Program-made: the position numbers and the translations under genes
Shown here: positions 11,185 through 29,574 of the stretch, one piece after another
How the letters are laid out: each line of letters starts with the position of its first letter
How positions within the stretch are numbered: the stretch's first letter is position 1
From: Asanoa siamensis
GTDB taxonomy: Bacteria > Actinomycetota > Actinomycetes > Mycobacteriales > Micromonosporaceae
Length of the DNA: 48,353 nucleotides
Assembly: GCF_016862555.1 (NCBI RefSeq)
Contig: NZ_BONE01000059.1
Location: 1-48,353, forward strand
Reading direction: 5' to 3'
The notes under the pieces: generated by a model
Databases searched by the model: none
Seen by the model: the letters and a program-made list of their open reading frames with translations, nothing else
Told to the model about the DNA's origin: nothing

Positions 11185-11856
11185 TCACAACGCCTGCCGC
11201 AGCCACTCCTCCACGCCCGCGATGTGCACGGTCGCCCACGACCGGGCGAGCTCCGGCTCCCCCGCGGCGATCGCGTCGACGATCGCCTGATGCTGTTCGC
11301 GGGTCTTGTCGACGGCCCCCTCCTGGGTGAGCCCGCGCCAGATCCGGGCCCGCGTCGTCGGCCCCGACAACCCGTCGATCAACGAGCACAGGGCGGCGTT
11401 GCCGGACCCGGCCGCGATCGCACGGTGGAACTCGAGGTCGTTGGCGACCAGCGCCTCCACGGACGGCGCAGGACCGAGCTCATCGAGTACGCGCTGCAGC
11501 TTGGCCACCTCCGGCTCGGTCATCCGCCGGGCGGCCAGCGCCGTCGCCGCCGGTTCCAGGATCCGGCGGACCTCGAGGAACTGCAGCACCGTGTCGTCGC
11601 GGTGGAAGTCGACCACGAAGCTGAGCGACTCGAGCAGCAGGTCCGGCGAGAGGCTGGTGACGTACGTGCCGTCACCCTGGCGTACGTCGAGCACCTTGAT
11701 GATGGAGAGCGCCTTGACCGCCTCGCGCAACGAGTTGCGGGACAGCCCGAGCCGCTCGGCGAGGTCGGCCTCCTTGGGGAGACGGTCTCCGGGGCCCAGG
11801 GCCCCGGAGACGATCATCTCCTTGATCTTGTCGATCGCTTCGTCGGTCAGCGCCAC
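11185..11856 (-). CDS. GntR (FadR-type) regulator of the sugar-acid locus
   Basis: A 223-residue FadR/FCD-type GntR regulator. The N-terminal winged helix (about 5-70) contains GDRLPKEADLAERLGLSRNSLREAV; the C-terminal FCD ligand domain (about 90-215) has the D-x3-H pattern (NDLEFHRAI) and later His residues used for metal binding. It is the last gene of the FucD-ABC operon, 12 nt after the permease. Members of this family commonly sense sugar acids such as uronates and aldonates, so L-fuconate or a keto-deoxy derivative is a plausible ligand. The repeated ATYSGAT-type motifs in front of FucD and of the GH95-like gene are its candidate operators. Confidence 0.88.
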   Translation of the reverse strand: MALTDEAIDKIKEMIVSGALGPGDRLPKEADLAERLGLSRNSLREAVKALSIIKVLDVRQGDGTYVTSLSPDLLLESLSFVVDFHRDDTVLQFLEVRRILEPAATALAARRMTEPEVAKLQRVLDELGPAPSVEALVANDLEFHRAIAAGSGNAALCSLIDGLSGPTTRARIWRGLTQEGAVDKTREQHQAIVDAIAAGEPELARSWATVHIAGVEEWLRQAL

Positions 11857-11868
11857 CGCGCGGCCCCC

Positions 11869-12894
11869 TCAGTCCTGGGCCTTGCCCGTCGTCACCCGGG
11901 CCAGCATCAGCGCGACCAGGATGATCAGGCCGTAGATGGCCTGGATCCACTGCGCCGAGACGCCGGCGAGCGTGAGGATGTTGTTGATCAGGCCGAGCAC
12001 GACGACGCCGCAGAGCGCGCCGAACAGCGTGCCCTTGCCGCCCTCCATGCTCACCCCACCGATCACCGCCGCGGCGAACACCGTGAAGATCATGCCGTTG
12101 CCCTGCGCCGACGCGACCGAACCGAGCCGGCCGGTCATCAGCAGGCCCGCCAGCGCGGCGAGCAGGCCACCGACGATGAACACCACGAAGATCACGCGGT
12201 CGGCCCGGATGCCGGCCGCGCGGGCGGCGTCACGGTTGCCGCCGATGGCGTACACCGCACGCCCGTGCCGGAACCACCCGAGCACCGCGATCCCGATCGC
12301 GAACAGCACCGCGCAGATCCAGATCGAGGCCGGCAGGCCGAGCCAGACCGCGTTGCCCAGGTAGAGCACCGACGACGGCAGTTCGAACAGGTTCTGCCCG
12401 CCGGTGATGCCGATCTGCAGGCCGCGCAGCACGATCAGCATGCCGAGCGTGACGATGAACGCCGAGAGCCCGAACCGCAGGATCAGCATCCCGTTGAACG
12501 CGCCGATGGCCACGCCGACGAGGAGGCAGATCGGGATCGCCAGCGCCGCGGACCACTCGGTGCCCAGCCCGTTGCTGGCCGCCGGGATGACCAAGGCGAC
12601 GGCGAGCGCCGGTGCGAGACCGACGGTCGACTCGAGCGACAGGTCGAACCGGCCGCCGATCAGGATGATCGCCTCGGCCAGCACGAGCAGCGATAGTTCC
12701 GTCTGCTGCTGCAGCACGTTGATGATGTTGGCGCTGCTCAGGAACACCGGGTCGATCAGAGCACCGACCAGGACCAGAACGATGATCGCGGGTACGAGCG
12801 CCAGGTCCCGCATCCGCGCGAGCCGCGGCCCCCGCAACCGGCGCGCGGCAGGCGCATCCGGCGTAGCGACGGGCGCGGTCGTGGTGCCGCTCAT
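11869..12894 (-). CDS. ABC sugar transporter permease (RbsC type)
   Basis: A 341-residue inner-membrane permease with eight to ten hydrophobic segments. It has the features of the ribose/autoinducer-type permease family (BPD_transp_2), such as an AVIGGVSMEGGKGT loop and GGNRDAARAAGI. One permease gene is present, which suggests a homodimeric channel as in RbsC. Its start overlaps the 3' end of the ATPase gene by 4 nt. It works with the ATPase and the lipoprotein upstream. The substrate is inferred from the adjacent L-fuconate dehydratase: L-fucose, L-fuconate or a related sugar. Confidence 0.92.
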   Translation of the reverse strand: MSGTTTAPVATPDAPAARRLRGPRLARMRDLALVPAIIVLVLVGALIDPVFLSSANIINVLQQQTELSLLVLAEAIILIGGRFDLSLESTVGLAPALAVALVIPAASNGLGTEWSAALAIPICLLVGVAIGAFNGMLILRFGLSAFIVTLGMLIVLRGLQIGITGGQNLFELPSSVLYLGNAVWLGLPASIWICAVLFAIGIAVLGWFRHGRAVYAIGGNRDAARAAGIRADRVIFVVFIVGGLLAALAGLLMTGRLGSVASAQGNGMIFTVFAAAVIGGVSMEGGKGTLFGALCGVVVLGLINNILTLAGVSAQWIQAIYGLIILVALMLARVTTGKAQD

Positions 12895-14489
12895 GACTCC
12901 GCTCCTTCTGCTGAAACACCTTTGCCGGCCCGTGAGCCGCCTTCACCGGCGGCCGCCCCGCCGTCGTCGTCGACGCCCTCGACCGCGGCGACCACCTGTG
13001 CGTCGTCCCAGCCGTGGGCCAGGGTGGCCGTGATCCGGCCGTGGAACATGACCAGCACCCGGTCGCAGTGGCGCAGGTCGTCGAGTTCGTCCGAGATCAT
13101 CAGGACGCCCGTGCCACCGTCGGCCGCCGCGCGGACCGCGCCCAGCAGCGACTCCTTCGAGCGCACGTCGACACCGGCCGTCGGGTTGATCAGCACCAGC
13201 ACCTTCGGGTCCGTCGACAGCGCGCGGGCCAGCACCACCTTCTGCGCGTTGCCGCCCGACAGGCTCGACACCGGCGCGTGCGGGCTCTCGGTCCGGATGT
13301 CGTACTTCCGCACCATCTCCGCGGCCACCGCCGCCCGCCGCCGCGGCACGACGACGCCCGCCGGGCCCAGCCGGTCCGCGATCGGCAGCGTCGCGTTCTC
13401 CGCCACCGACAGCAGCGGCACCAGGCCCTCGCGGTGGCGGTCCTCGGGCACGAGCCCGATCCCGGCCCGCAACGCCGCCGGCACCCCCGCGCCAACCGGC
13501 GCGGAGCCCACCGACACCGTGCCCCCGTCGGCGCGACGCAACCCGCCGACGGTCTCGGCCAGCGACACCTTGCCGCTGCTCCCGGAGCCGGTCACCCCCA
13601 CGATCTCCCCGGCGCGCACCGACAGGTCGATCCCCGTGTACGCGCCGGCGAGGGTGAGGCCCGACAGCGTCAGCGCGGCCGCGGCCGACGACGGCACCGA
13701 CCGCGGCGCGACGGACGTGAGCCCGACCGCCTCGCCGGTCATGGCGGAGACCAGAGCGTCGTGCCCGACCGCCGACACCGGCTCGGTGAGCACCCACCGG
13801 GCGTCCCGCAGCACGGTGACCGTGTCGCACACCTCGTAGACCTCGCGCAGGTGGTGCGAGATGAACAGCATCGTCACGCCGGCCGCGGACAGTGCCCGCA
13901 TCCGGGTGAAGAGCCGCTCGATCGCGGTCGCGTCGAGCCGCGCGGTCGGCTCGTCGAGGATGATGAACCGCGCGCCGACGGAGAGCGCCCGGGCGATCTC
14001 GACGAGCTGTCGCTGCTCGACGTTGAGGTCCCCGGCCAGCGCGCCCGGATCGACCGCGACGCCGTACTCCTCCAGCAGCGACGCGGCCCGGCGGCGCACG
14101 GAACCCCAACGGATCACACCAAAACCGGCCTGCCGGTTGAGGAACAGGTTCTCCGCCACCGACAGGGTCGGGATGATGGTGGACCGCTGGTAGACGCAGG
14201 CCACCCGGCGGCGCCAGCCGTCGCGGTCGGACGGTGCCGGCGCCGGCTCGCCGCCGAACGACACCGTGCCCTCGTCGGCCCGCTGCAGCCCGGTGAGCAC
14301 CGACACCAGCGTCGACTTGCCGGCGCCGTTGCGGCCCACCAGGGCATGCGTCTCACCCGGGCGCACCGTGAGAGACACATCGGACAGTGCGGTGGTCGCG
14401 CCGAAGCGCTTGGTGATCTGGTTGGCCGAGACGGCCGGGGGCGGGGCGCCAGCCCCACTCCCGGCCGCGTCGGAGAGCACTGCGGTCAT
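12891..14489 (-). CDS. ABC sugar transporter ATPase, two NBDs (RbsA type)
   Basis: About 532 residues with two fused nucleotide-binding domains. NBD1 has Walker A GRNGAGKST at 52-60 and Walker B with catalytic Glu (IILDEPTARLD), but its signature LNVEQRQ departs from LSGGQ, as is common in RbsA. NBD2 has a clean signature LSGGNAQK, yet its P-loop is GSGSSGKV (no Ser/Thr after Lys) and its Walker B reads LINPTAGVD, with Asn where the catalytic Glu belongs. So probably only one composite site hydrolyses ATP. The ATG at 14489 overlaps the stop of the binding-protein gene (TGATG arrangement), indicating coupling; an upstream start at 14513 is less likely. Confidence 0.92.
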   Translation of the reverse strand: MTAVLSDAAGSGAGAPPPAVSANQITKRFGATTALSDVSLTVRPGETHALVGRNGAGKSTLVSVLTGLQRADEGTVSFGGEPAPAPSDRDGWRRRVACVYQRSTIIPTLSVAENLFLNRQAGFGVIRWGSVRRRAASLLEEYGVAVDPGALAGDLNVEQRQLVEIARALSVGARFIILDEPTARLDATAIERLFTRMRALSAAGVTMLFISHHLREVYEVCDTVTVLRDARWVLTEPVSAVGHDALVSAMTGEAVGLTSVAPRSVPSSAAAALTLSGLTLAGAYTGIDLSVRAGEIVGVTGSGSSGKVSLAETVGGLRRADGGTVSVGSAPVGAGVPAALRAGIGLVPEDRHREGLVPLLSVAENATLPIADRLGPAGVVVPRRRAAVAAEMVRKYDIRTESPHAPVSSLSGGNAQKVVLARALSTDPKVLVLINPTAGVDVRSKESLLGAVRAAADGGTGVLMISDELDDLRHCDRVLVMFHGRITATLAHGWDDAQVVAAVEGVDDDGGAAAGEGGSRAGKGVSAEGAES

Positions 14490-15547
14490 CACTTCCCGAT
14501 CTGGTTGCCCCACAACGACGCGTCGTCGACGTTGTCCTTCGTCACGAGCGGCGCCGGCAGCTGGTCCTCGAGCACGCCGTTGCCGACGTCGATGATGGTG
14601 CTGTCGTGGTCGGTAGGTCCAGGGGTGAACGTCTTCCCCTCGACCGCGGCCTTCGCGTAGAAGAGCGCGTACTTGGCGTAGAGGTCGGCCGGCTGCGAGA
14701 CGGTGGCGTCGATCTCGCCCTTGCGGATCGCCTCGAACTCCTGCGGGATGCCGTCGTTGGAGACGATGAAGATGTGCTTCGGGTCGGTCGGCGGCACCAG
14801 CAGGTTCTTGGACTTCAGCAGCTGCAGGGTCGGCGCCAGGAACACGCCGCCGGCCTGCATGTAGATGCCGTTGATGTCAGGGTGCTGGGCGAGCCGGGTC
14901 TGCAGGGCGGCGGACGCCTTGGCGCCCTCCCACTCGGTCGGCTCCTCGAAGACCGTGATGCCGGGGAACTTGCTCTTCATGCACTCGGCGAACGCCTCGG
15001 ACCGGTCGCGGCCGTTGACCGACGAGAGCGAGCCCTGGAACTCGACGACCTTGCCCTTGCCGCCGAGCTTCTCACCGAGGAACTCGCACGCCTTCTGGCC
15101 GTAGGCGCGGTTGTCGGCCCGCACCACCATGAAGACCTTGCCCTTGTCGGGCCGGGTGTCGACGGAGACGACGGGGATCTTCTTGCTCTCCAGCGTCGCC
15201 AGCGTCGAGGCGATCGCGCCCGTGTCCTGCGGCGCCATCACGATCGCCTTGGCGCCCTGGGCGGTGAGCGCCTGGGCGTTGGCGACCAGCTTCGCGATGT
15301 CGTTCTGCGAGTTGGTCGGCGTCATCAGGTTGATGCCGCTCTCCTGCGCGTACTGCGGAATGTACTTCGCGTAGGAGTTCCAGAAGTCGGAGTCGGCCCG
15401 GGGCAGGTCGACGGCGATCTGGGCGCTCGCGTTGCCGGTGCCACTGCCACCGGACGAGGCGGGCTCGGACGAGTTGCAACCGGCGGTCGCCGTGACGAGC
15501 GCGGCGGCGAACGCCACACCGACGACGGCGCGTCTCTTCAGGTTCAT
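14489..15547 (-). CDS. Sugar-binding lipoprotein (RbsB type)
   Basis: A 352-residue substrate-binding protein. Residues 1-23 are a lipoprotein signal peptide with the lipidated Cys at 24 (TATAGC), followed by a Gly/Ser-rich linker. The rest is a periplasmic-binding-protein type 1 fold of the sugar family (ADSDFWNSYAKYIPQYAQ, AKAIVMAPQD, PVVSVDTRPDK, FIVSNDGIPQ). It captures the ligand for the permease and ATPase encoded next. The start at 15547 has an AGAGGA site; the open frame continuing to 15940 lies inside the dehydratase gene and is discarded. The substrate is inferred from FucD to be fucose- or fuconate-like. Confidence 0.92.
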   Translation of the reverse strand: MNLKRRAVVGVAFAAALVTATAGCNSSEPASSGGSGTGNASAQIAVDLPRADSDFWNSYAKYIPQYAQESGINLMTPTNSQNDIAKLVANAQALTAQGAKAIVMAPQDTGAIASTLATLESKKIPVVSVDTRPDKGKVFMVVRADNRAYGQKACEFLGEKLGGKGKVVEFQGSLSSVNGRDRSEAFAECMKSKFPGITVFEEPTEWEGAKASAALQTRLAQHPDINGIYMQAGGVFLAPTLQLLKSKNLLVPPTDPKHIFIVSNDGIPQEFEAIRKGEIDATVSQPADLYAKYALFYAKAAVEGKTFTPGPTDHDSTIIDVGNGVLEDQLPAPLVTKDNVDDASLWGNQIGK

Positions 15548-15593
15548 CACTGTCCTCTGTGGTGGGGAGAGGGATGGGTAGGGGTGGTGCGGG

Positions 15594-16901
15594 TCAGACG
15601 GCGCGCGACCAGGCCGGCCCGTCGGGGAAGGCGAACCGGGCCCGGCTTTCGGGGCGCATCGTCGAACTGAAGCCGGGCGCCTGGGGTGCCAGGTAACGAC
15701 CGGCGCGGATCTGCACGGGATCGAGGAAATGCTCGTGGAGGTGGTCCACGTACTCGATGACACGGTTGTCCATGGAGCGGGACACCGCGACGTAGTCGAA
15801 CAGCGAGAGGTGCTGCACCAGCTCGCAGAGGCCGACGCCGCCGGCGTGCGGGCAGACGGGGACGCCGAACTTGGCCGCGAGCAGGAGGATCGCGATGTTC
15901 TCGTTGACGCCGGCCACCCGGGCGGCGTCGAGCTGCACATAGGACACCGCGCCGAGCTGGAGGAGCTGCTTGAAGACGACCCGGTTCTGCACGTGCTCGC
16001 CGGTGGCGACCGGGACAGGGGCGATGCCGCGGGCGATCGCCGCGTGCCCGACGACGTCGTCGGGGCTGGTCGGCTCCTCGACCCACCAGACGTCGTACGG
16101 AGCCAGCGCGCCGACCCAGTCGATGGCGTCGCCGACGTCCCACCGCTGGTTGGCGTCGACAGCGATCCGGATGTCGGGGCCGCACACCTCGCGGGCGATC
16201 CGCAGGCGGCGGACGTCGTCGGCCAGGTCGGCGCCGACCTTCAGCTTGATCTGGGCGAACCCGGCGTCGACGGCCTCCCGGCACAGCCGGCGCAGCTTGT
16301 CGTCGTCGTAGCCGAGCCAGCCCGGCGAGGTGGCGTAGGCCGGGTAGCCGTGCGCGAGCAGCTCGGCGACCCGCTCCTCACGTCCCGACGCGCCCGGCTG
16401 CAGCAGCGCGAGTGCCTCGCCCGGGGTCAGCGCGTCGGTCAGGTAGCGGAAGTCGACGAGGGAGACGAGCTCCTCGGGCGGCATCGAGCCCAGGAGCTGC
16501 CAGAGCGGCAGGCCCGCCTGCTTGGCCTTGAGGTCCCAGAGCGCGTTGACCACGGCCGAGATGGCCATGTGCATGACGCCCTTCTCCGGCCCCAGCCAGC
16601 GCAGCTGCGAGTCGTGCACCAGCTCGCGCCAGAACGCGCCCAGGTCGTCGAGGACGTTCTTGACGAGGCGGCCGGCCAGGTAGGGCCGCAGCGCGGCGAT
16701 CGCGGCCGTCTGCACCTCGTTGCCGCGCCCGATGGTGAACGCGAACCCGTGCCCTTCCGGCTCCACTGGCTGGTCGGTGCGCAGCACCACGTAGGCGGCG
16801 GAGTAGTCCGGGTCGGGGTTCATCGCGTCGGAGCCGTCGAGCTCGCGCGAGGTCGGGAACCGCACGTCGTAGGTGTCCAGCGACACGAAGCGGGCGGTCA
16901 T
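15594..16901 (-). CDS. L-fuconate dehydratase, enolase superfamily
   Basis: A 435-residue mandelate racemase/enolase-type enzyme that dehydrates L-fuconate to 2-keto-3-deoxy-L-fuconate in oxidative L-fucose catabolism. The active-site set is complete: K219-x-K221 (KLKVG), metal ligands D249, a Glu in VEEP (275/276) and E302, and catalytic H352. The spacing matches the characterised Xanthomonas enzyme (remembered as K218, K220, D248, E274, E301, H351), and stretches such as [14 protein letters not shown] and ATSPGWLGY are typical of FucD and human ENOSF1. GAGGA precedes the ATG. It is the first gene of the operon with the ABC importer and GntR regulator. Other fucose enzymes (dehydrogenase, lactonase, aldolase) are not in this operon. 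Confidence 0.92.
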
Positions 16902-16921
16902 CGATGATCCTCACGCGCATT

Positions 16922-16957
16922 CATAGATCCGATGTTTACCAGGTGGTCGGATGTATG
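16922..16957. promoter_or_regulatory. Inverted-repeat operator candidate in front of the FucD operon
   Basis: CATAGATCCGA (16922-16932) and TCGGATGTATG (16947-16957) form an imperfect 11-bp inverted repeat (10 of 11 pairs) with a 14-bp spacer, 21 bp upstream of the FucD start. Each half contains an AT(C/T)(C/G)GATG core. It is a good candidate site for the operon's GntR regulator. Confidence 0.5.
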
Positions 16958-16984: not shown

Positions 16985-17010
16985 GAATCGCCCCGTCACC
17001 GAGGCGATTC
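16985..17010 (-). terminator. Terminator hairpin after the GSDH-fascin gene
   Basis: Perfect 8-bp inverted repeat GAATCGCC / GGCGATTC with a 10-nt loop. Read on the minus strand it lies 24 nt after the stop of the GSDH gene and is followed by TTCCTTTG. It probably separates the secreted-enzyme transcript from the FucD operon. Confidence 0.55.
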
Positions 17011-17033: not shown

Positions 17034-17410
17034 TCAGACCAGGTCGAACTTCTCCCACGGCCCGATGGCGGCACGGTTGGCGATCAGCGAGGCCGCGCCC
17101 GCGTTCTCCGCGACCACGTACATGCCGTTGACGGTCGCCCGCAGGCTCTCACTGCCGTCGGAGTTGCGGACCAGCGTGAACGTCTCCCACGACCCGGCCG
17201 TGGCCCGGTTCGCGACGAGCGCGCCCGCGCCGGCGTTCTCCGCGCAGACGAACATGTTGTTGGCCCGCGACCGCAGCGCCACGTTGCCACCGCCCAGGTC
17301 GACCACGTCGAACCGCTCGGTCGCGCCCGCCGTCGCCTTGTTGGCGATCAGCGGTGTCGTGCTGTTCGCCGCGCTGACGAACTGGTTGTTGGCCAGCGCC
17401 TTCAGCGTCG
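17034..17410 (-). repeat. Fascin-like trefoil coding repeat, copy 1
   Basis: Encodes the C-terminal fascin-like beta-trefoil. The same module, very similar in DNA and protein, ends the genes at 25081 and 26347. Shared blocks include VDLGGGNVALRS and AIGPWEKF. Confidence 0.8.
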
Positions 17411-19865
17411 ACCCACCGGTCGGCGGCGTGCCGCCCGAGTTGATCGTGTACGCGTCCAGGTCGAACAGGTTGCCCGCCCCGCCCTTGAACACGAAGAACA
17501 GCTGGGTCGACCCGGACGGCACGTTCGTCAGGTTGGCCGTCACGTTGGCGTAGGTCTCCCAGCCACCGGTCGGGCCGACCGTCAGCGTGCCGTGCAGCGG
17601 GCCGGTCTGCGAGCCGCTGCGCACCTCGATCGTGCCGCCGATGGTGCCGGAGGCGACCCGCGCGGTGATGCTCGTGGCACCCGACAGGTGGTACGGCCGG
17701 AACGAGATCCAGTCGTTGTTGTCGATGTAGCCCGCCGTCGCGCCACCCTCGGCCGCCGCGTGGTTGGCGATCTGCACGCCACCGGACTGGGCCGCGAAGT
17801 GCTCGCCCTGGCGGTGCCGGGGCTGCAGGACCTTCTGGTTGGTCGTGGTCAGGCCGCCGTTGTCGGTGTACGACGCGACGAAGATGCCGAAGATGTTGGC
17901 TGCCGCGTCGTGCTCGCCGTCGGTGGGCACGGTGAGCGTCCCGGAGCAGCCGGTCTTCGAGGTGATCTGGTGCGAGTGGTTGTCGTGGCCGAGGAAGTAG
18001 GTCACCGACACCCGCGCGCAGTTGATGGTGCCGTCCTCAGGATCGGAGACGCTCACCGTGTACGGGATGGTGTCGCCGAAGTTGAACAGCGCGCCATCGG
18101 CCGGGGCGCTGAGGTTGACCGTCGGCGCCGAGTTGCCCACGGTGACGACCAGGCTCGCGGTGCCGGAGAGCCCCGTCGGGTCGGTGACCCGCAGCGTCGG
18201 CGTGAACGTGCCGTTGCTGTTGTAGGTCTTGGTCGGGTTCGCCGCCGTCGAGGTGGTGCCGTCGCCGAACGTCCAGAGGTACGACAGTGCGCCGCCCTCC
18301 GGGTCCGACGACCCCGCCGACGAGAAGGTGATCGTCAGCGGCGCCGGGCCCGACGTCCGGTTGGCCGAGGCCACCGCGACCGGGCTGCGGTTGCCGCCGC
18401 CGATGTACTCGATCCGGTACAGCGCCTGGTTGTTGGAGCCCGTGCCGTAGTCGAGCACGTAGAGGGCGCCGTCCGGCCCGAAGGCCATGTCCATGACCTG
18501 GGTGCCGTCCCACGGGAAGTCCGAGATCTCGCCGTACGTCCCGTTGCTGTTGACCGCGATGGCCTTGATCCACTGGCGGCCGTACTCGCCGGCGAAGTAG
18601 CGGCCGTCGAGCGACTGCGGGAACTTCACGGCCGAGTTCAGGGACGCGTTGTAGCGGTAGACCGGGCCGCCCATGGGCGACTCCGAGCCACCGCCGAACT
18701 CGGGCGGGGTCCCTTCGAAGCCGTACCGGATCCAGGCCGGCTTCGCGGCGGGCAGCGTCGTCAGGCCGGTGTTGCGGAACGAGTTGTTGGTCGGCCCGCC
18801 CGCGCAGTTGTATTTGGCCTGGGACGGCCCGCTCGGGAACGTGTACTCGTTGTAGGTCTCGGTCGTCGTGTTGTTGCCCGTGCAGTACGGCCAGCCGTAG
18901 AAGCCCGGACCGGTGATCCGGTTGAACTCGACCTGGCCGCCGGGGCCGCGGTTGGGGTCGGCGGCACCCGCGTCCGGGCCGTAGTCGCCGAGGTAGACGA
19001 TGCCGGTCGGCTTGTCGACGCTCATCCGGAACGGGTTCCGGAAGCCCATCGCGTAGATCTCCGGACGGGTGTTGGCCGTGCCCGGCGCGAACATGTTGCC
19101 GGCCGGGATCGTGTAGCCGCCCGCCGCCGTCGGCTTGATCCGCAGCACCTTGCCGCGCAGGTCGTTGGTGTTGGCCGACGAGCGCTGCGCGTCGAACTGC
19201 GGGTTGCGGTTGGTCCGTTCGTCGATCGGGGTGTACGCGCTGCTCTCGAACGGGTTCGTGTCGTCGCCGGTGGTCAGGTAGAGGTTGCCGGCCGCGTCGA
19301 AGTCGATGTCGCCACCGACGTGGCAGCACTGCCCGCGGTCGTTGGCGACGGTCAGCGTGACGACCTGGCTGCCCATGTTGAGCGTGTTGTCGGCGTTGAG
19401 GGTGAACCGCGACAGGTTGAGCTGGCCCTTCCACGCGTTGAAGTCGGCCGCGGTGCCGGTCGTCGGCGCGTCACCGCCCGGTGTCGACAGCGGCGGCGAG
19501 TAGTAGATCCAGACGTGCCGGTTGGTGGCGAAGTTCGGGTCGACGGCGACGCCCTGCAGGCCCTCCTCGTCGTGGGTGTAGACGGGGATGGTGCCGGCCA
19601 CCTTGGTGTTGCCGGCGGGGTCGGTGACGCGGACCGTGCCGTTGCGGGCGGTGTGGATGACCGTGCGGTCGGGCAGCACGGCCAGCGACATGGCCTCGCC
19701 GATCTCGGCCGAGCCGACGGCGAGCTGCACGGCCTGGTAGTCGGCCGGCGGGATGGGAGCCGCGGCGGCGGGTGCCGCGGCCGTGGTCACCGCCAGCGTG
19801 GAACTGGCGGCGCCGAGCAGGCCGACGGCGAGCAGCCGCGACCAGCGCCGGGGGTTGGGGCGCAT
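17034..19865 (-). CDS. Secreted GSDH-PKD-CBM protein with fascin-like trefoil
   Basis: About 943 residues. Domains in order: signal peptide (1 to ~36); glucose/sorbosone-dehydrogenase-type beta-propeller (~40-490; EEGLQGVAVDPNF, DIDFDAAGNLYLTTGD, TNDLRGKVLRIKP); PKD domain (~495-580); an Ig-like linker domain with LGHDNHSH (~590-690); a CBM6-like jelly roll (~700-805); and a fascin-like beta-trefoil (~815-943) with repeats of the form ANN(Q/M)FV...ANRA. GSDH proteins are usually PQQ-dependent sugar oxidoreductases; cofactor and substrate here are inferred. AAAGGAA sits 5 nt before the ATG at 19865, and the gene starts 11 nt after the ThuA-DUF1080 stop, so the two are co-transcribed. It is a paralogue of 22070-24943. 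Confidence 0.85.
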   Translation of the reverse strand: MRPNPRRWSRLLAVGLLGAASSTLAVTTAAAPAAAAPIPPADYQAVQLAVGSAEIGEAMSLAVLPDRTVIHTARNGTVRVTDPAGNTKVAGTIPVYTHDEEGLQGVAVDPNFATNRHVWIYYSPPLSTPGGDAPTTGTAADFNAWKGQLNLSRFTLNADNTLNMGSQVVTLTVANDRGQCCHVGGDIDFDAAGNLYLTTGDDTNPFESSAYTPIDERTNRNPQFDAQRSSANTNDLRGKVLRIKPTAAGGYTIPAGNMFAPGTANTRPEIYAMGFRNPFRMSVDKPTGIVYLGDYGPDAGAADPNRGPGGQVEFNRITGPGFYGWPYCTGNNTTTETYNEYTFPSGPSQAKYNCAGGPTNNSFRNTGLTTLPAAKPAWIRYGFEGTPPEFGGGSESPMGGPVYRYNASLNSAVKFPQSLDGRYFAGEYGRQWIKAIAVNSNGTYGEISDFPWDGTQVMDMAFGPDGALYVLDYGTGSNNQALYRIEYIGGGNRSPVAVASANRTSGPAPLTITFSSAGSSDPEGGALSYLWTFGDGTTSTAANPTKTYNSNGTFTPTLRVTDPTGLSGTASLVVTVGNSAPTVNLSAPADGALFNFGDTIPYTVSVSDPEDGTINCARVSVTYFLGHDNHSHQITSKTGCSGTLTVPTDGEHDAAANIFGIFVASYTDNGGLTTTNQKVLQPRHRQGEHFAAQSGGVQIANHAAAEGGATAGYIDNNDWISFRPYHLSGATSITARVASGTIGGTIEVRSGSQTGPLHGTLTVGPTGGWETYANVTANLTNVPSGSTQLFFVFKGGAGNLFDLDAYTINSGGTPPTGGSTLKALANNQFVSAANSTTPLIANKATAGATERFDVVDLGGGNVALRSRANNMFVCAENAGAGALVANRATAGSWETFTLVRNSDGSESLRATVNGMYVVAENAGAASLIANRAAIGPWEKFDLV

Positions 19866-19876
19866 GGGCGTTCCTT

Positions 19877-22069: not shown

Positions 22070-24943
22070 TTACGGCAGCGTCCAGTTCTGGGCGCCGGTG
22101 CCGTTGCAGTCGTAGATCTGCAGCTGGGTTCCGTTGGTGGTGTTCGAGCCGGGGATGTCGAGGCACTTGTTGGACTGCGGGTTGCGCAGGCCGCCGTTGG
22201 CGGCGGTCACCCACTGCTGGGCGCCCGTCCCGTTGCACGTATAGAGGTGGATCTTCGTGCCGTTGGTCAGGCCGCTGGACTGGACGTCCATGCACTTGCC
22301 GAGTGAGCGGATCGTGCCGTCGGTGCCCACTGTCCAGGTCTGGTTCGTCGCGCCGTTGCAGTCCCAGATCTGGATCTTCGTGCCGTCGGCGGTGGCGCCG
22401 CCGTTGACGTCGGCGCACTTCCCGAGCGCCCGGATGGCACCCGTGCGCGGCCCGCCGCCACCGACCGGCGTCGAGACACCGGCGCCGAGGAACGTGTAGC
22501 TGTCGAGGTCGAGGAACGCACCGCTGCCGCCCGTGAACACGATGTAGAGGTCGTGCGTGTTGTCGTCGGGCTTGGTCACCGGCACGGTGATGTCGCGGTA
22601 GGTGTCCCACGAACCGGTGCCGGGCACCGCGACCCGCGCGACCTCCGGCCCCGTGGTCGAGTCGTAGCGGAACGAGACCGTGCCGCCCGCGCCGCCCGAG
22701 GAGACCCGGGCCCGGACCTGGGTGATCCCCTTGAGGCTGACGGCGTGGTGCCGCACGTACTCGCCGTTCTGGATGTCACCGAGCCGCTTGCCACCCTCGG
22801 CCCCGGAGGCGTTGATGACCTGCGGGCCGTTGAGCGTCGTGTAGTGCTCGGCCTGCCATTGCTTGGGCCAGAGGGTGATCTCCTTCTCGCCGGTCAGCGG
22901 CACCGTCCCGGTCGCGCCCCGGTCGGTGTAGCTGGACCGCAGCACGAAGAACAGCGTCGAGTCGGGGCCGGCGTGCACCGGGCCGGTGTTGACGGTGAAC
23001 CCGCAGCCGGTGCCCTGACCCTCCTCGTGCGCGTGCTCCTGGTGGCCGAGCGCGGCCCGGATCACCACGTTGCCGCAGGCGATCGTGCCGTCCTGCGGGT
23101 CGGTCGCCGTGGCGGTGGTGGTGACGTTCTCGTCCCACGAGATCATGCCGCCGGCCGGCACGCCGTTCAGCGTGACCGTGGGGCGGTTGTTGCCGACGAC
23201 GATCGGCAGCAGCGTGGTGCCGCTGCGGCCGGTGCCGTCGTTGACCGTCAGCCGCGCCCGCTTGTCGCCGACCGTGGTGTAGGTGTAGGTCGGGTTGGCC
23301 GCGGTCGAGTCGACCGTGCCGTTGTTGTCGAAGTCCCACTGGTAGGTCAGCGGGTTGCCGTCGGGGTCGGTGCTGCCCGCGCTGGAGAAGGTGACCTGCA
23401 GCGGGGCGAGGCCGTTGTCCCGGTTGGCCGACGCGACGGCGACCGGTGCCCGCCCGCCGGCGACGTAGTTGATCTTGTAGAGGCCGGCCGCCACGTCACC
23501 GGAGAAGTAGCCGTTGCCGTACTCGAGCAGGTAGAGCGACCCGTCCGGGCCGAACTCCATGTCGATCGGGTGCACGAGTTGCATGCCGGCCAGCACCGGC
23601 TCGATCACCGTCGGGTTGCCGGTGACGGGGTTGCCGTTGTCGAACTGGACCTCCTTGATCCAGTTGCGGCAGTACTCGGAGATCAGCCACTTGTTGTCGT
23701 AGTACTGCGGCCATTTCACGTCCGAGACGAGGTTCGGGTCGTAGTGGTAGACCTCGGTGTGGTTCGGCGAGCCGCAGCCGCCCGGGTTGTCCAGGGCCGG
23801 CCACTCGCGGCTGCCGCCGTGCTGCTCCCAGACCAGCGCCGGCTTCGTCGGCGGGAGTTGCTGCAGGCCGGTGTTGCGCGGCGAGTTGTTGACCGGGCCG
23901 GTCGAGCCGCCGCACGGGAACCAGCCGCGCGGCGCGTTGGCGGCGAAGTCCCAGTCGTTGTAGGCGACGTTCGGCCCACCGCAGTACGGCCAGCCGTAGT
24001 TGCCGGGCGCGGTGGCGCGGTTGAACTCGTCGTAGGCCGCCGGGCCGCGGTTGGCGACCGTCGCACCGGCGTCGGGCCCGACCTCGCCCCAGTAGAGGGT
24101 GTTGTTGGCCTTCTTGTCGACCCAGATCCGGTACGGGTTCCGCGTGCCCATGATGTAGATCTCGGGGCGTGTCCCGGCCGTGCCCTGCGCGAACAGGTTG
24201 CCGCTCGGGATCGTGTAGGTGCCGTTCGCCTGCGGCTTGATCCGGTTGATCTTGCCACGCAGGTCGTTGGTGTTGCCGCTCGTCCGCTGGGCGTCGTACT
24301 GCGCGTCGCGGTTCGTGCGCTCGTCGATCGGCGCCATGCCGGCCGAGTCGCCGCCGGAGTTGGTGTTGTCGCCGACCGCGAAGTAGAGGTTGCCGGCGGT
24401 GTCCCAGGTCATCGAGCCTGCGCTGTGGCAGCAGAGCCGCCGCTCCGTGGGCCACTCGATGATCATGTCCTCGGACGCCGGGTCGATGGCATTCGTGCCC
24501 GCGTTGAAGGTGAACCGGGAGATCCGGTTGACCAGTGTGGACTGGGCCGGCGAGTAGAAGAGGTAGAGCCAGCGGTTCGTGGCGAAGCCGGGATCGAGCG
24601 TGATGCCGATCAGGCCGTCCTCGAACCGGGCGTCCAGCGCCAGCGTGAGCGCGACCGTCGTCGTCCGGGTGGTGGGGTTGTAGAGGCGGACCTGGCCGCC
24701 GCCGGACGACGTGCCGCGGTTGATGTAGAAGACCTTCTGGTCGGGCGCCACCGCGAGCTCGATGGGCTCGCCCATCGAGGTGCCGCCGTCGAGCTTGACC
24801 TTCTCGAACAGGTTGGTCGCGGGCGGCGCGGCGGCTGCGGGCGTCTGGGTGACGGTCAGCGCCGCCAGGCTGGCGGCCATGAGCATGGCGGCGAAGAGCG
24901 CGCCCAGGAGGCGCGGTCTGCGGCGCAGGGACGTACGTCGCAT
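22070..24943 (-). CDS. Secreted GSDH-PKD-CBM protein with ricin-type lectin
   Basis: A 957-residue paralogue of the protein at 17034. Signal peptide (1 to ~39), GSDH beta-propeller (~45-500; DGLIGITLDPGFATNRW, GDNTNSGGDS, TNDLRGKINRIKP), PKD domain (~505-595), an Ig-like linker with LGHQEHAHEE (~600-725), a CBM6-like jelly roll (~727-830, QAEHYT...GEYVRHH) and a ricin-type beta-trefoil (~840-957) with three QxW-type repeats (CNGATNQTW, CNGTGAQQW, CNGTGAQNW). It differs from its paralogue mainly in the C-terminal lectin, which suggests the same chemistry aimed at a different glycan. PQQ dependence is presumed from family, not shown. Confidence 0.85.
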   Translation of the reverse strand: MRRTSLRRRPRLLGALFAAMLMAASLAALTVTQTPAAAAPPATNLFEKVKLDGGTSMGEPIELAVAPDQKVFYINRGTSSGGGQVRLYNPTTRTTTVALTLALDARFEDGLIGITLDPGFATNRWLYLFYSPAQSTLVNRISRFTFNAGTNAIDPASEDMIIEWPTERRLCCHSAGSMTWDTAGNLYFAVGDNTNSGGDSAGMAPIDERTNRDAQYDAQRTSGNTNDLRGKINRIKPQANGTYTIPSGNLFAQGTAGTRPEIYIMGTRNPYRIWVDKKANNTLYWGEVGPDAGATVANRGPAAYDEFNRATAPGNYGWPYCGGPNVAYNDWDFAANAPRGWFPCGGSTGPVNNSPRNTGLQQLPPTKPALVWEQHGGSREWPALDNPGGCGSPNHTEVYHYDPNLVSDVKWPQYYDNKWLISEYCRNWIKEVQFDNGNPVTGNPTVIEPVLAGMQLVHPIDMEFGPDGSLYLLEYGNGYFSGDVAAGLYKINYVAGGRAPVAVASANRDNGLAPLQVTFSSAGSTDPDGNPLTYQWDFDNNGTVDSTAANPTYTYTTVGDKRARLTVNDGTGRSGTTLLPIVVGNNRPTVTLNGVPAGGMISWDENVTTTATATDPQDGTIACGNVVIRAALGHQEHAHEEGQGTGCGFTVNTGPVHAGPDSTLFFVLRSSYTDRGATGTVPLTGEKEITLWPKQWQAEHYTTLNGPQVINASGAEGGKRLGDIQNGEYVRHHAVSLKGITQVRARVSSGGAGGTVSFRYDSTTGPEVARVAVPGTGSWDTYRDITVPVTKPDDNTHDLYIVFTGGSGAFLDLDSYTFLGAGVSTPVGGGGPRTGAIRALGKCADVNGGATADGTKIQIWDCNGATNQTWTVGTDGTIRSLGKCMDVQSSGLTNGTKIHLYTCNGTGAQQWVTAANGGLRNPQSNKCLDIPGSNTTNGTQLQIYDCNGTGAQNWTLP

Positions 24944-25034
24944 GTGGATGCTCCCGTGGTGGGTAGGGGTTGCGGAGCATGGGCGAGACCGTTGCCCGCA
25001 CGGCCGACGCGGCCGTGCGGGACGACGGACGATT

Positions 25035-25080
25035 GGAACGGTCCGTTGTTATACGGAAACCGTTAACAACGGACCGTTCC
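25035..25080 (-). terminator. Long perfect hairpin, GGAACGGTCCGTT family, copy 1
   Basis: GGAACGGTCCGTTGTTA (25035-25051) and its exact complement (25064-25080) form a 17-bp stem with a 12-nt loop, starting right after the TAA stop of the ThuA-fascin gene. Each arm is itself near-palindromic (AACGG-T-CCGTT). It is almost the same element as that at 33946-34003, so it belongs to a repeated terminator family. Confidence 0.75.
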
Positions 25081-26235: not shown

Positions 26236-26303
26236 TGCGCTCCTCCGATGGGGGTTGGATCGGAGCCGGGCCGCCGACGCTCGGCATGGGACGGGGGTGG
26301 TGC

Positions 26304-26333
26304 GGGGCCAGGGTGTGCCACTCCCCTGGCCCC
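26304..26333 (-). terminator. Hairpin between GH95-like and ThuA-fascin genes
   Basis: Perfect 10-bp inverted repeat GGGGCCAGGG / CCCTGGCCCC with a 10-nt loop, 13 nt downstream of the GH95-like stop on the minus strand. No T-run follows. Likely a terminator or an element that lowers read-through into the ThuA gene. Confidence 0.6.
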
Positions 26334-26346
26334 CGTTGCGGTGGGT

Positions 26347-26740
26347 TCAGCCCGCGACGAGCGTGAACTTCTCCCACGGTCCGATGGCGTCGCGGTTGGC
26401 GATGAGGTTGCCCGCACCGCCGTTCTCCGCGACGACGTACTTGTTGTTGACGGTGGCTCGCAGGCTGATCGTGCCGTCCGAGTTGTTGACCCGGGCGAAC
26501 GTCTCCCAGGCTCCGGCGCTCGCGCGGTTGGCGACCAGCGCCTGCGCGCCGGCGCCCTCCGCGCAGACGAACTGGTTGTTGGCCCGCGATCGCAGCGCCA
26601 CGTTGCCGCCGCCGAGGTCGACCACGTCGAACCGTTGCGTCCCGCCGATCGTCGTGCCGTTGGCGATCAGCGGTGTGGTGGCGGACGCGGCCGTCACGTA
26701 CAGGTTGTTGGCCCCGGCCCGCAGCGCGGTGCCGCCCGTG
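26347..26740 (-). repeat. Fascin-like trefoil coding repeat, copy 3
   Basis: Third trefoil-coding segment, ending the GH95-like gene. It shares the VDLGGGNVALRSRANN block and the AIGPWEKF ending with copies 1 and 2. Confidence 0.8.
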
Positions 26741-29481
26741 CCCGGATTGCCGCCGCCGGTGAGGATCCGCAGCGCGTCGATCATGCCGACCGAGGTCGTC
26801 TTGTTGACGATGCGGATCGTGTGCTGGCCGTTGGTCAACCCCGTCCGGCTCCAGACCACCTGTTGCGCCTGGCGCGCGCCGCTGACGTTGAGGTTGACGT
26901 TGGCCTGGAACGCGCCGTCGAGGTAGACGTCGACGTTGCCCATGTCGCTGAACCGCTCGGAGAGATATTCCACGCCCGTGCCGGTGAACGTGTAGGACGC
27001 CTCCGCGTTGACGGTGGTGCTGTGGTGGGTGTCGTCGTTGTAGTCGCCGTAGCCGCGGGCCGTGGTCAGGTGCCAGTTCGGGCCGTAGGTCAGGTCGGTG
27101 TTGTTGACCAGCCCGCCCTGACCGGCCGGGCCGAGGCCGAACGTGGAGGCGGTGCCGGAGAGCGACTTGACGCCCTGGTTGGCCGTGCCGGTCAGGGTGG
27201 TCGCGGAGTAGGAGGTCAGCGGCTTGGCCACCCGCTCCACCACGTAGCTGGTGTTCGCCGCCGTCGCCCAGGTCACCTCGGCCGCCGAGACCGTGGTGAG
27301 GATGGCGTTGTCGCTGGTGCGGCGCACCCGGATCTGCTGGGTGCCCCACGGGTTGACGACCCGGGCCTGCTTGCCGTGCAGGCTGCGGACGCCTACATAT
27401 TTGGTCTCCTGGGCCTCGCGCTCCGCGCTGACCAGGAAGCCGTCCTTGGCCAGCAACGTGAACTTGCCGACGAAGCCGGAGTCCGACGGGATCGCGGGGA
27501 ACACCCGGATCTTGTCGTTGTACGACTGCATCAGGGACTCGTTCATCGCCGCGAGGTGGATGCCGATGTACTCGTACACCCCGTTGGTGTTGTTGGTCAT
27601 GCCGTTGGGGTAGTTCTGGTACTTCTGCAGCATCGTCTTCATGCCGGCCTGTGCCTGCGGGCCGAGCCCGAGCCGGGCCGCGTGCACGTGGTCGTTGGCC
27701 CAGACGTTGCCGTAGGGGTGCGGCCGCACGTTCCACGTGGTGATGCTGGTCTGGTGGTCAGGGAAGCCGATGCCGCTCTGGTCGTAGGGCCAGACGAGCT
27801 CCAGCGCGACGTTCTCGCCGTTGCGGGTCGGTGACGTCGGTGGGTCGTGCGGCAGGTAGGCGCCGTTGGAGATCTGGTAGGGAGCCAGGTTGTTCAGCAC
27901 GTCCTGCCAGCCGGCCCGCAGTCCACTGTCGAGCCCGAGCTGCGTCGACACCTGGATCGTCAACGGGTAGAGCAACCGGATCGCGGCCAGGTCGGTGAGC
28001 GCGTTCTTCACGTCCCAGTAGGTCTCGTGCGCGTTGGAGCTCGCCATGTAGTACTGCGCCCCGTTGCGGGACAGCCGGTTCTGGTAGAACCGCGCCGCGT
28101 CCCGCATGAACGGGTAGGCGACGTCCCGCAGGTAGGCCGCGTCGTTCGTGTACCGGTAGTAGAGGTACATGTTGTAGGCGGCCTCGGTGCCCGTCGAGTA
28201 GGTGTCGTTGACGAAGTCGCTGTTGATGGTGCCGCGGGCGTTGCCGTCCCAGCCCATCGTCTCGGGCACCCAGAGCGAGTCGGTGCCGTACCGCGTCTGC
28301 GTGTAGCTCTTCATCGCGGCGTAGTTGCGGGAGTAGAGGTTGTTGAACGTCCGCATCAGCTCCGTATGGTTCGAGCTGTAGAACGAGTTGTAGACGTCGC
28401 GTTGGTTCCAGTACCAGTAGCCGTTGGACCACTTGGAGTTGTCCTGGGTGGCCCGGAAGTTGCCGTTGATGAAGTGCAACGGGTAGTTGCCGTAGCCGCC
28501 GGCCGCGATCATGTAGGTGAACAGGTAGTAGGCGTTCTCCAGGTAGTCGTTGTCGGCGCTGCCGCCGTACTGCACGAACGACTTGGCCCAGAACGCGTGC
28601 CACCAGTTCTTGTAGGCGTTCAGCGTGCTGGTGTAGCCGGCCGCCTTGACCGCCGCGAGTTGGTTGCGGGCCTGCTGCACCGAGTTCTGCCCGGGCGAGT
28701 TGACCCGACTGGCAGCGGTGAACCAGATCGTGTAGCTCGAGGTCGGCGTGATGTTCAGCCGCACCCGGGTGCCGTTGACGGTCTGCGCCGTGTAGCTCGC
28801 GCCCTCGACGGTCGCGGCGAACGTGTAGCCGAAGTTGTTGGGGTCGGCCTGGCCGCGGGACAGGCCCACGCCGGTCGAGTCGGCGAACGTGCTCACCGTG
28901 CGCCAGGTCGTCAGGTTCGGCACGTCGGCGATGTTCTGGACGGTGTTCATGTCCCAGAGCGACAGGTCGAGCCCGATGCTGGACACGCCCGGCCGGGAGT
29001 CCTCGACGTGGATGCCCATCACCTCGGAGTTGGGCGCGCCGAAGACGGTCACCGTGCGGTTGCTGTCGTACTTGGTGGTCAGCGTGCCGTCGTAGAGCGA
29101 CAGCCGCTGCTGGAACGTGCTGTAGCCGGTGTCCATCTGCGGCGACGTGGAGAGGTTCAGGTTGCCGGCCGCGTAGGTCGACTGCTGCGCCAGGTCCACA
29201 CCGGACACCTGGGCGGTCAGCCCGTTCTGGTTCCACACCATCGCGCCCGTGCGGCCGTTGCCGACGGTCAGCCCGTGCAGCGGGTTGGTGTTGGGGCGGT
29301 TGTAGACGACGTCGTGCTTCGACAGGTAGTTGGCGTAGTCGACGTTGAGCGCGCCGGTGCCCGCGTTGTAGGCGGCATCGGTGGGTGCCGCACCGGCCGG
29401 GTTCGACGCGACGGCGACGAGGCCGCCCGTCGCTAGGAGGACGAGCACGCTGGCCCGCACAATCGGCGAACGCACCTTCAT
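26347..29481 (-). CDS. Secreted GH95-like glycoside hydrolase with fascin-like trefoil
   Basis: A 1044-residue secreted protein. Signal peptide 1 to ~31. An N-terminal beta-sandwich (~45-290; HDVVYNRPNTNPLHGLTVGN, then GRTGAMVW) resembles the GH95/DUF5703 N-domain. A large alpha-helical barrel follows (~300-700; WSNGYWYWNQRDVYNSFYSS, then the WGNA-like MGWDGNARGT region), consistent with an (alpha/alpha)6 GH95-type catalytic domain. Then come a beta domain, a jelly-roll module (~790-910, SYTFTGTGVEYL) and a fascin-like trefoil (~915-1044). GH95 enzymes are alpha-L-fucosidases or galactosidases, which fits FucD nearby, but the exact family and catalytic residues were not proved here. It is first in the secreted-enzyme series; the ATG has AAGGGA upstream. 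Confidence 0.75.
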   Translation of the reverse strand: MKVRSPIVRASVLVLLATGGLVAVASNPAGAAPTDAAYNAGTGALNVDYANYLSKHDVVYNRPNTNPLHGLTVGNGRTGAMVWNQNGLTAQVSGVDLAQQSTYAAGNLNLSTSPQMDTGYSTFQQRLSLYDGTLTTKYDSNRTVTVFGAPNSEVMGIHVEDSRPGVSSIGLDLSLWDMNTVQNIADVPNLTTWRTVSTFADSTGVGLSRGQADPNNFGYTFAATVEGASYTAQTVNGTRVRLNITPTSSYTIWFTAASRVNSPGQNSVQQARNQLAAVKAAGYTSTLNAYKNWWHAFWAKSFVQYGGSADNDYLENAYYLFTYMIAAGGYGNYPLHFINGNFRATQDNSKWSNGYWYWNQRDVYNSFYSSNHTELMRTFNNLYSRNYAAMKSYTQTRYGTDSLWVPETMGWDGNARGTINSDFVNDTYSTGTEAAYNMYLYYRYTNDAAYLRDVAYPFMRDAARFYQNRLSRNGAQYYMASSNAHETYWDVKNALTDLAAIRLLYPLTIQVSTQLGLDSGLRAGWQDVLNNLAPYQISNGAYLPHDPPTSPTRNGENVALELVWPYDQSGIGFPDHQTSITTWNVRPHPYGNVWANDHVHAARLGLGPQAQAGMKTMLQKYQNYPNGMTNNTNGVYEYIGIHLAAMNESLMQSYNDKIRVFPAIPSDSGFVGKFTLLAKDGFLVSAEREAQETKYVGVRSLHGKQARVVNPWGTQQIRVRRTSDNAILTTVSAAEVTWATAANTSYVVERVAKPLTSYSATTLTGTANQGVKSLSGTASTFGLGPAGQGGLVNNTDLTYGPNWHLTTARGYGDYNDDTHHSTTVNAEASYTFTGTGVEYLSERFSDMGNVDVYLDGAFQANVNLNVSGARQAQQVVWSRTGLTNGQHTIRIVNKTTSVGMIDALRILTGGGNPGTGGTALRAGANNLYVTAASATTPLIANGTTIGGTQRFDVVDLGGGNVALRSRANNQFVCAEGAGAQALVANRASAGAWETFARVNNSDGTISLRATVNNKYVVAENGGAGNLIANRDAIGPWEKFTLVAG

Positions 29482-29514
29482 CCGACACGATCCCTTCTAG
29501 ATCGTTTCGTCCGG

Positions 29515-29536
29515 TGCCCATCCGCCGAAATGGGCA
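29515..29536 (-). promoter_or_regulatory. Small hairpin in the GH95-like 5' leader
   Basis: TGCCCAT (29515-29521) / ATGGGCA (29530-29536), 7-bp stem with 8-nt loop, 33 bp upstream of the GH95-like start. It could be an operator or a leader hairpin; function unknown. Confidence 0.3.
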
Positions 29537-29563
29537 TCGACCTTCATCTGTGACGTGTAGTCA

Positions 29564-29574
29564 ACATTGGATGT
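29564..29574. promoter_or_regulatory. ACATTGGATGT operator-like motif upstream of the GH95-like gene
   Basis: ACAT-TGG-ATGT is a small palindrome 82 bp upstream of the GH95-like start. Its ATTGGATGT core matches the ATCCGATGT and TCGGATGT cores in front of the FucD operon. It is a candidate shared site for the locus GntR regulator. Confidence 0.4.

What the first reader, a model, noticed from the sequence alone, without database searches (positions are those of the whole stretch)
11185..29574. An 18-kb extracellular glycan oxidation/hydrolysis plus sugar-acid uptake locus
All ten genes lie on one strand. Five encode secreted proteins: a GH95-like hydrolase, two ThuA proteins (one with DUF1080, a family including 3-keto-glycoside hydrolases) and two GSDH-type putative oxidoreductases, all carrying sugar-binding modules. 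They adjoin L-fuconate dehydratase and a one-substrate ABC importer. Known pathways put 3-keto chemistry in the periplasm of Gram-negatives; a secreted, lectin-tethered version in an actinomycete, linked to oxidised-sugar import, would be a distinct system. The linkage is inference from gene order and domains.
Basis: partly seen in the sequence, partly recalled or inferred. Interest (0 to 1): 0.72.

Follow-up and report, generated by a model that had tools for sequence, protein, structure and literature searches.

The report
Fucose-harvesting gene cluster of an actinomycete
A soil actinomycete carries a conserved set of ten genes that probably frees the sugar L-fucose from a polysaccharide outside the cell, imports it and breaks it down, with five secreted sugar-binding proteins, two of them resembling sugar-oxidising enzymes whose part in the process is still unknown.

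Summary
The ten genes are real, on one strand, and belong together. The genome is an Asanoa (Micromonosporaceae); 5 of 5 genus mates found keep all ten. They form two units: [GH95-like, ThuA, GSDH2, ThuA-DUF1080, GSDH1] and [L-fuconate dehydratase (FucD), ABC importer, GntR]. Both units, and a separate operon for L-fucose oxidation on another contig, carry one palindromic operator, ACATCSGATGT. With at most 1 mismatch it lies upstream of the GH95-like gene in 49 of 80 named loci (about 1 expected) and of FucD in 14 of 15. Two of its inferences lack support. Close relatives of the importer sit beside aldose-dehydrogenase and lactonase genes in one other genus, and more distant ones elsewhere, so free L-fucose is the likelier cargo, not a sugar acid. 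Nothing in the locus is known to make 3-keto sugars, and no PqqC was found in the genome. The modules (CBM92, CBM32-type) point to fungal glucans rather than fucoidan or mucin. What GSDH/ThuA/DUF1080 contribute stays open; extracellular oxidation of fucose is possible and testable.

The parts
26347..29481 (-). secreted GH95-like/DUF5703 hydrolase with C-terminal CBM92-like module
   Evidence: Pfam Glyco_hydro_95_cat 36.9 bits (cut-off 27), DUF5703_N 38.9 (26.7), DUF7910; 7zoh match, which is CpCBM92B; WExF at residues 992 and 1036
29564..29574 (.). operator-like site 1 upstream of GH95-like (ACATTGGATGT, 1 mismatch)
29639..29649 (.). operator-like site 2 upstream of GH95-like (ACATCGGAGGT, 1 mismatch); it also abuts the start codon of the divergent gene at 29650
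   Evidence: 75 bp from site 1, one of only two such close pairs in the genome
25081..26235 (-). secreted ThuA protein with CBM92-like module
   Evidence: ThuA 278.5 bits, DUF7910; WExF at 334 and 378
22070..24943 (-). secreted GSDH2: GSDH propeller, PKD, CBM6, ricin lectin
   Evidence: Pfam; H, R, N equivalents conserved
19877..21988 (-). secreted ThuA-DUF1080 (3keto-disac_hyd) with two F5/8C modules of CBM32 type
   Evidence: Pfam; best PDB hits of the modules 4zy9/2rv9/2rva glucanase/chitosanase
17034..19904 (-). secreted GSDH1: GSDH propeller, PKD, CBM6, CBM92-like module
16985..17010 (-). terminator-like hairpin (11 pairs, T-rich tail) between the two units
   Evidence: scan total 6 against 7.3 expected, so weak on its own
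16925..16935 (.). operator-like site 24 bp upstream of FucD (AGATCCGATGT, 1 mismatch)
15594..16901 (-). L-fuconate dehydratase (FucD)
   Evidence: 1yey 660 bits, residues 5-432 aligned
14489..15547 (-). lipoprotein-type sugar-binding protein Peripla_BP_4 of the ABC importer
   Evidence: Pfam; leader with TAGC
12891..14513 (-). double ABC ATPase of the importer
   Evidence: Pfam
11869..12894 (-). importer permease BPD_transp_2
   Evidence: Pfam
11185..11856 (-). GntR-FCD regulator, likely repressor of the regulon
   Evidence: Pfam; 78% identical paralogue in the C21 fucose operon (L090)

Best explanation
An L-fucose harvesting and catabolic locus. The tethered, secreted GH95-like enzyme removes L-fucose (or another L-galacto-configured sugar such as L-galactose or D-arabinose) from a glycan held by glucan-binding modules, probably a fungal-wall heteroglycan. 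The ABC importer takes up the free sugar. Inside, an AKR aldose dehydrogenase and a lactonase (encoded on contig C21) make L-fuconate, FucD dehydrates it and an SDR oxidises it on. A GntR-FCD repressor binding ACATCSGATGT controls the secreted unit, the FucD-importer unit and the C21 operon together. GSDH1, GSDH2, ThuA and ThuA-DUF1080 are a co-transcribed accessory module: the GSDH proteins most likely oxidise reducing sugars at C1 with scavenged PQQ; ThuA and DUF1080 roles are unknown. Shown: gene content, conservation, shared operator-like sites, neighbours. Inferred: substrate, regulator-operator pairing, co-transcription, every catalytic step.
For: Operator: 4 sites with at most 1 mismatch in the window against 0.45 expected, 0 of 100 shuffles reaching 4; 3 of the 4 lie just upstream of GH95-like and FucD. 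Genome-wide 45 such places (reversed control 4); the only pairs within 100 bp are at the C21 FucD operon and at the GH95-like gene. Upstream of GH95-like in 49 of 80 named loci, about 0.0115 expected per stretch. Within about 320 bp of the start, named loci: GH95 47 of 80, FucD 14 of 15, GSDH1 0 of 18, GSDH2 0 of 24; unnamed-genome loci plus window: GH95 24 of 42, FucD 16 of 30, GSDH1 0 of 35, GSDH2 0 of 28. Neighbours: FucD lies in the flank of GH95-like in 15 of 80 named loci, each time with the importer's binding protein, and in 15 of 42 unnamed-genome loci of five genera. Actinoplanes italicus has GH95-like beside AKR, lactonase, FAH, FucD, SDR and an importer (L075). Own C21: GntR, lactonase, AKR, SDR, FucD (L090). 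Cohnella WQ127256: GH95-like beside a Peripla_BP_4 importer and an FGGY kinase closest to rhamnulokinase, 496 bits, below its cut-off of 528.
Against: 38 of 80 named GH95-like loci show none of the partner genes within the flank at the thresholds used, and 31 of 80 lack an operator-like site, among them 8 of 8 Catellatospora and 6 of 6 Firmicutes loci. The GH95 assignment is distant: a Glu is invariant, but the remaining catalytic residues of GH95 were not all located, and the model of this domain was poor (pLDDT 58.7). Lactonase and FAH matches of the relatives are below NCBIfam cut-offs. The evidence that the importer carries the sugar rests, for close relatives, on two genomes of one genus. 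No binding or enzyme data were found for these proteins.
Confidence: 0.63

Rival explanations
1. Extracellular oxidation and acid import: GSDH1/2 oxidise released L-fucose at C1 to L-fuconolactone outside; L-fuconate is imported and goes straight to FucD.
For: In Asanoa, Acrocarpospora, three Dactylosporangium loci and Herbidospora, FucD and the importer stand without any AKR, lactonase, FAH or SDR match of the kinds I searched for in the flank (other enzymes were not searched for there). Fungal PQQ enzymes of the same fold (AA12) use L-fucose among their best substrates (passages of PMC4332668 and PMC6881810). His145, Arg239, Asn240 invariant in 20 of 20 aligned GSDH domains. In G058 ThuA-DUF1080 and GSDH2 lie downstream of GntR, on the same strand as the FucD operon (L111).
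Against: Importer relatives sit with AKR and lactonase genes: close ones in L097 and L117 (binding protein 83%, permease 82-85%, ATPase 69%; one genus), distant ones (57-68%) in L113, L118 and the own L091. Acrocarpospora and Dactylosporangium keep GH95-FucD-importer without GSDH or ThuA in the flank: 8 loci. No PqqC match in the own genome or the four genus mates searched; 11 of 101 family genomes pass the cut-off. The same regulon already encodes intracellular oxidation (L090).
Confidence: 0.22
2. 3-keto-glycoside route: the secreted oxidoreductases make 3-keto sugars that the DUF1080 domain cleaves.
For: DUF1080 is present at 131.5 bits; DUF1080 proteins BT2157 and CCNA_01705 are linked to 3-keto-disaccharides (passages of PMC9007349).
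Against: No LacABC-type or Gfo/Idh-type 3-dehydrogenase among the ten genes; the rest of the genome was not searched for one. GSDH-fold enzymes described in the passages act at C1; another DUF1080 protein is an endo-xanthanase/lichenase; no NCBIfam model matches the ThuA-DUF1080 protein at E 0.001.
Confidence: 0.1
3. Two unrelated loci that are neighbours by accident, the secreted half being a general polysaccharide kit.
For: The two halves occur apart in several genera (Catellatospora, Acrocarpospora); ThuA/GSDH paralogues are scattered over the genome.
Against: Shared operator-like sites and repeated, differently arranged linkage: Herbidospora, Virgisporangium, Actinoplanes NBRC 103695, G058.
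Confidence: 0.05

Closest known systems
Non-phosphorylating L-fucose pathway (Xanthomonas-type: fucose dehydrogenase, fuconolactonase, FucD, KDF dehydrogenase/hydrolase; scheme recalled)
   Same: FucD here and lactonase, AKR, SDR matches on C21 of the same genome, same operator
   Different: Linked here to a secreted, lectin-bearing hydrolase/oxidoreductase unit; the first steps lie on another contig
GH95 / DUF5703 hydrolases (solved: 9hmb, 9hyq, 8zbv, 2rdy)
   Same: Domain matches above Pfam cut-offs; an invariant Glu
   Different: Remote (best phmmer to a solved catalytic domain E 2e-10); forms its own well-conserved group, 60-97% identical in the 80 loci kept
PQQ aldose sugar dehydrogenases and AA12 pyranose dehydrogenases
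   Different: Secreted multi-module proteins with PKD, CBM6 and lectin; a Cys-Cys pair before the catalytic His in 18 of 20 domains; no PqqC found in the genome
LacABC-DUF1080 and BT2157-2160 3-keto-glycoside systems
   Same: DUF1080 domain, secreted
   Different: No 3-dehydrogenase in the locus; DUF1080 fused to ThuA and CBM32-type modules
CBM92 modules of Chitinophaga pinensis (7zoh, CpCBM92B)
   Same: phmmer match and WExF in two of three sites
   Different: Attached here to three different proteins of one locus

Membership tests
L-fuconate dehydratase (enolase superfamily) | full-length similarity to characterised FucD with enolase-superfamily motifs | tested here: met
   1yey, residues 5-432, 660 bits, with the KxK, D, E, E and H stretches aligned (motif roles recalled)
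L-fuconate dehydratase (enolase superfamily) | turnover of L-fuconate | not testable with these tools
   needs assay
GH95 | GH95 catalytic domain above curated cut-off | tested here: met
   PF22124 36.9 bits against 27
GH95 | general acid Glu plus Asn/Asp base network (residues recalled) | tested here: inconclusive
   Glu at domain position 451 invariant in 23 of 23; base network not aligned fully; model too poor
PQQ sugar dehydrogenase (sGDH/ASD/AA12) | GSDH propeller fold | tested here: met
PQQ sugar dehydrogenase (sGDH/ASD/AA12) | catalytic His and PQQ-flanking Arg-Asn | tested here: met
   invariant in 20 of 20, aligned with solved relatives
PQQ sugar dehydrogenase (sGDH/ASD/AA12) | PQQ bound and used | not testable with these tools
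   no PqqC match in the genome, so PQQ would have to be scavenged
3-keto-glycoside degradation system | DUF1080 hydrolase | tested here: met
   PF06439 131.5 bits
3-keto-glycoside degradation system | glycoside 3-dehydrogenase in the locus | tested here: not met
   no LacABC or Gfo/Idh/MocA domain among the ten genes
CBM92 | beta-trefoil with WExF sugar sites | tested here: met
   7zoh (CpCBM92B) match; two WExF sites in each of three proteins, third site altered
Sugar-acid importer | binds and carries L-fuconate rather than L-fucose | tested here: inconclusive
   neighbours of relatives favour the sugar; no ligand test possible

The most novel reading that the evidence does not exclude
A Gram-positive, lectin-tethered outer head of the fucose pathway: hydrolase and PQQ dehydrogenases held on fungal glucan free L-fucose and oxidise it on the spot to fuconolactone/fuconate, ThuA and ThuA-DUF1080 process oxidised or lactone ends, and a fuconate importer feeds FucD directly.
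Probability: 0.2. Interest if true: 0.75.

Novelty: new variant of a known kind. Interest (0 to 1): 0.5.

Why it matters
It ties two poorly understood protein families that recur in this genome and its relatives (secreted ThuA and GSDH-PKD-CBM proteins) to one definite sugar pathway and one candidate regulator, so their function becomes testable with a single inducer, L-fucose. It also gives a group of GH95-like/DUF5703 enzymes, found from Micromonosporaceae to Cohnella, a probable substrate class.

Tried and rejected
Sugar-acid importer: set aside, not excluded, after importer relatives were found with AKR and lactonase. On recount the close relatives of that kind come from one genus only, so I lowered the main reading from 0.65 to 0.63 and raised this rival to 0.22 and the novel case to 0.20. 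3-keto chemistry: no dehydrogenase partner in the locus. Literature: ThuA with 3-keto, 26 papers, none of the 20 listed on this topic by title; DUF1080 with 3-keto, one paper; DUF5703, 0 papers; ThuA + PQQ-dependent + carbohydrate-binding, fucose + GntR + Streptomyces + GH95, and fuconate dehydratase + operator + GntR, 0 papers each, 56 papers, 10 listed, none on DUF1080 in actinomycetes by title. All in the held open-licence library only. Papers were seen as search listings and as passages; none was read whole.

The GH95-like structure prediction was too poor (pLDDT 58.7) and was not searched. Of 22 operator-like sites elsewhere in the genome that I placed (of 45 in all), 13 lie inside predicted ORFs and 9 between them; of the intergenic ones I scanned neighbours of only some: an ABC ATPase, a glucosaminidase, an NAD kinase and, downstream of its 3' end, an FAA hydrolase. 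I treat them as chance, but did not place the other sites. Two exact sites outside the C21 operon (C17 inside an ORF, C57 between genes) are unexplained. With up to 2 mismatches the window is at chance (5 found, 6.94 expected). The terminator scan as a whole is at chance (6 found, 7.3 expected) and no sigma-70-like promoter was found in 11000-30000. Neighbours of GH95-like in Cohnella are mixed: L190 has four Gfo/Idh-type or LacI-type regulator and dehydrogenase genes rather than a fucose pathway.
Full report
What is there. The ten genes exist on one strand as described. FucD is convincing: it matches the solved L-fuconate dehydratase 1yey over residues 5-432 with 660 bits. The five secreted proteins carry CBM6, CBM32-type, ricin or CBM92-like modules. 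The C-terminal module called DUF7910 by Pfam in GH95-like, ThuA and GSDH1 matches 7zoh, which its paper names CpCBM92B (passage), and each copy keeps two of the three WExF sugar sites. The CBM92 modules studied there bind beta-1,6-glucan and beta-glucans with beta-1,6 branches; one related protein binds carrageenan (passages of PMC11039641). The two F5/8C modules are closest to those of a glucanase/chitosanase.

Where it is from. The own genome holds 8.78 Mb in 219 contigs.

Conservation. The 5 genus mates among the 200 family genomes drawn have all ten genes in order; no other of 42 fetched loci has all ten. Of 80 named loci (the best 80 of 122 found, from 77 genomes; flanks of 10 kb at most, some cut short), 31 have ThuA, 27 GSDH, 15 FucD (each with the binding protein), 7 FucD together with GSDH/ThuA, 8 FucD without them, and 38 none of the partners. 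The Asanoa loci count as lacking FucD there only because it lies beyond the flank. Arrangements differ: Virgisporangium has all but an adjacent GntR; Herbidospora has ThuA-DUF1080 divergent from GH95-GSDH2-FucD-importer; Acrocarpospora and three Dactylosporangium loci have GH95-FucD-importer without GSDH or ThuA; Catellatospora has the secreted set, and an unrelated importer where the stretch reaches far enough. Several genera add a secreted GH99-CBM92 protein. In G058 ThuA-DUF1080 and GSDH2 lie downstream of GntR on the strand of the FucD operon (L111). Repeated linkage in different orders argues for a working unit; the many loci without partners argue that GH95-like also works alone.

Regulation. 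Upstream stretches of fucose operons showed a palindrome, ACATCSGATGT. In the window, at most one mismatch gives 4 sites (0.45 expected; none of 100 shuffles reached 4): two before GH95-like, one before FucD, one inside the acetyl-CoA synthetase gene. The site at 29639 also abuts the divergent gene at 29650. In the whole genome there are 45 such places, reversed control 4, and only two pairs closer than 100 bp: at the FucD operon of C21 and at the GH95-like gene. The pattern was noticed partly on the window itself, so the fairer test is elsewhere: 49 of 80 named GH95-like upstream stretches have a site, about 0.0115 expected per stretch; three of the 80 are Asanoa. In a tighter stretch the named loci give GH95 47 of 80, FucD 14 of 15, binding protein 2 of 16, ThuA 9 of 43, GSDH1 0 of 18, GSDH2 0 of 24, GH99 0 of 7; the unnamed-genome loci with the window give GH95 24 of 42, FucD 16 of 30, binding protein 7 of 23, FAH 4 of 5, ThuA 1 of 44, GSDH1 0 of 35, GSDH2 0 of 28; random stretches of that second set 1.7%. 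The genomes are related and the two sets overlap, so these are not independent trials; 31 of 80 have no site. The sites mark the first genes of the two units, and a terminator-like hairpin at 16985-17010 lies between them. The GntR-FCD protein is the natural candidate because its 78% identical paralogue sits in the C21 operon; binding is inferred.

What is imported. Close relatives of the importer sit in operons with FucD in L097, L110, L111 and L117 (binding protein 83-87%, permease 82-85%, ATPase 69-74%); L097 and L117, both of one genus, also hold AKR and lactonase genes. More distant importers (57-68%) accompany FucD, AKR and lactonase matches in L113, L118 and the own paralogue L091. The AKR of A. 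italicus is nearest to L-galactose dehydrogenases, its lactonase to L-fuconolactonase (179 bits, below the cut-off of 400). Oxidation inside implies import of the free sugar. This is an argument from neighbours, not a test of the binding protein.

Target. CBM92 and CBM32-type relatives bind fungal-type glucans; GH99-like neighbours suggest alpha-mannan (one search names GH99 alpha-mannanases among CBM92 carriers); Mucoromycota walls contain mucoran (glucuronic acid, L-fucose, mannose) and up to 25% fucose in Umbelopsis (passages of PMC10481521). A fungal-wall glycan is therefore a better first substrate than fucoidan, xyloglucan or mucin. This is inference.

Verdict. I read it as an L-fucose regulon with a tethered extracellular unit: a new variant of a known kind.

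Noticed in passing
window 17034-24943 (GSDH1, GSDH2) and paralogues: A Cys-Cys pair directly precedes the catalytic His in 18 of 20 GSDH domains aligned (absent in the C106 and C1 paralogues); a vicinal disulfide near the PQQ site is possible.
   Followed up: partly
window 24944-25080: A perfect 17-bp inverted repeat lies between the ThuA gene and GSDH2 (seen), perhaps an internal attenuator.
   Followed up: no
window ThuA domains 21255-21904, 25501-26151: 13 of 13 aligned ThuA domains share His89, Glu142, His174 and His194, which might suit a metal site.
   Followed up: no
G000 contigs C57, C24, C38, C106, C1: Five ThuA-GSDH fusion frames elsewhere in the genome: a recurring module of unknown function.
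   Followed up: partly
window 37867-39180: SMP-30/gluconolactonase-like protein 8 kb beyond the cluster; no sign that it belongs to it.
   Followed up: no
L075 12239-13324 and L145: A second enolase-superfamily dehydratase is paired with an unrelated importer beside GH95-like in Actinoplanes italicus and Hamadaea.
   Followed up: no
L095 14163-14957: Erm-type 23S rRNA methyltransferase gene beside the chromosomal fucose operon of an Asanoa (252 bits, cut-off 212).
   Followed up: no
L189, L190, L192, L194-L196: GH95-like relatives 60-66% identical in Cohnella and Paenibacillus, so the group crosses phyla.
   Followed up: partly
G000:C17:124684, C57:24707, C145:1162: Two further exact operator matches, one inside an ORF and one between genes about 4 kb from a ThuA-GSDH fusion, and a one-mismatch site beyond the 3' end of an FAA hydrolase gene.
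   Followed up: partly
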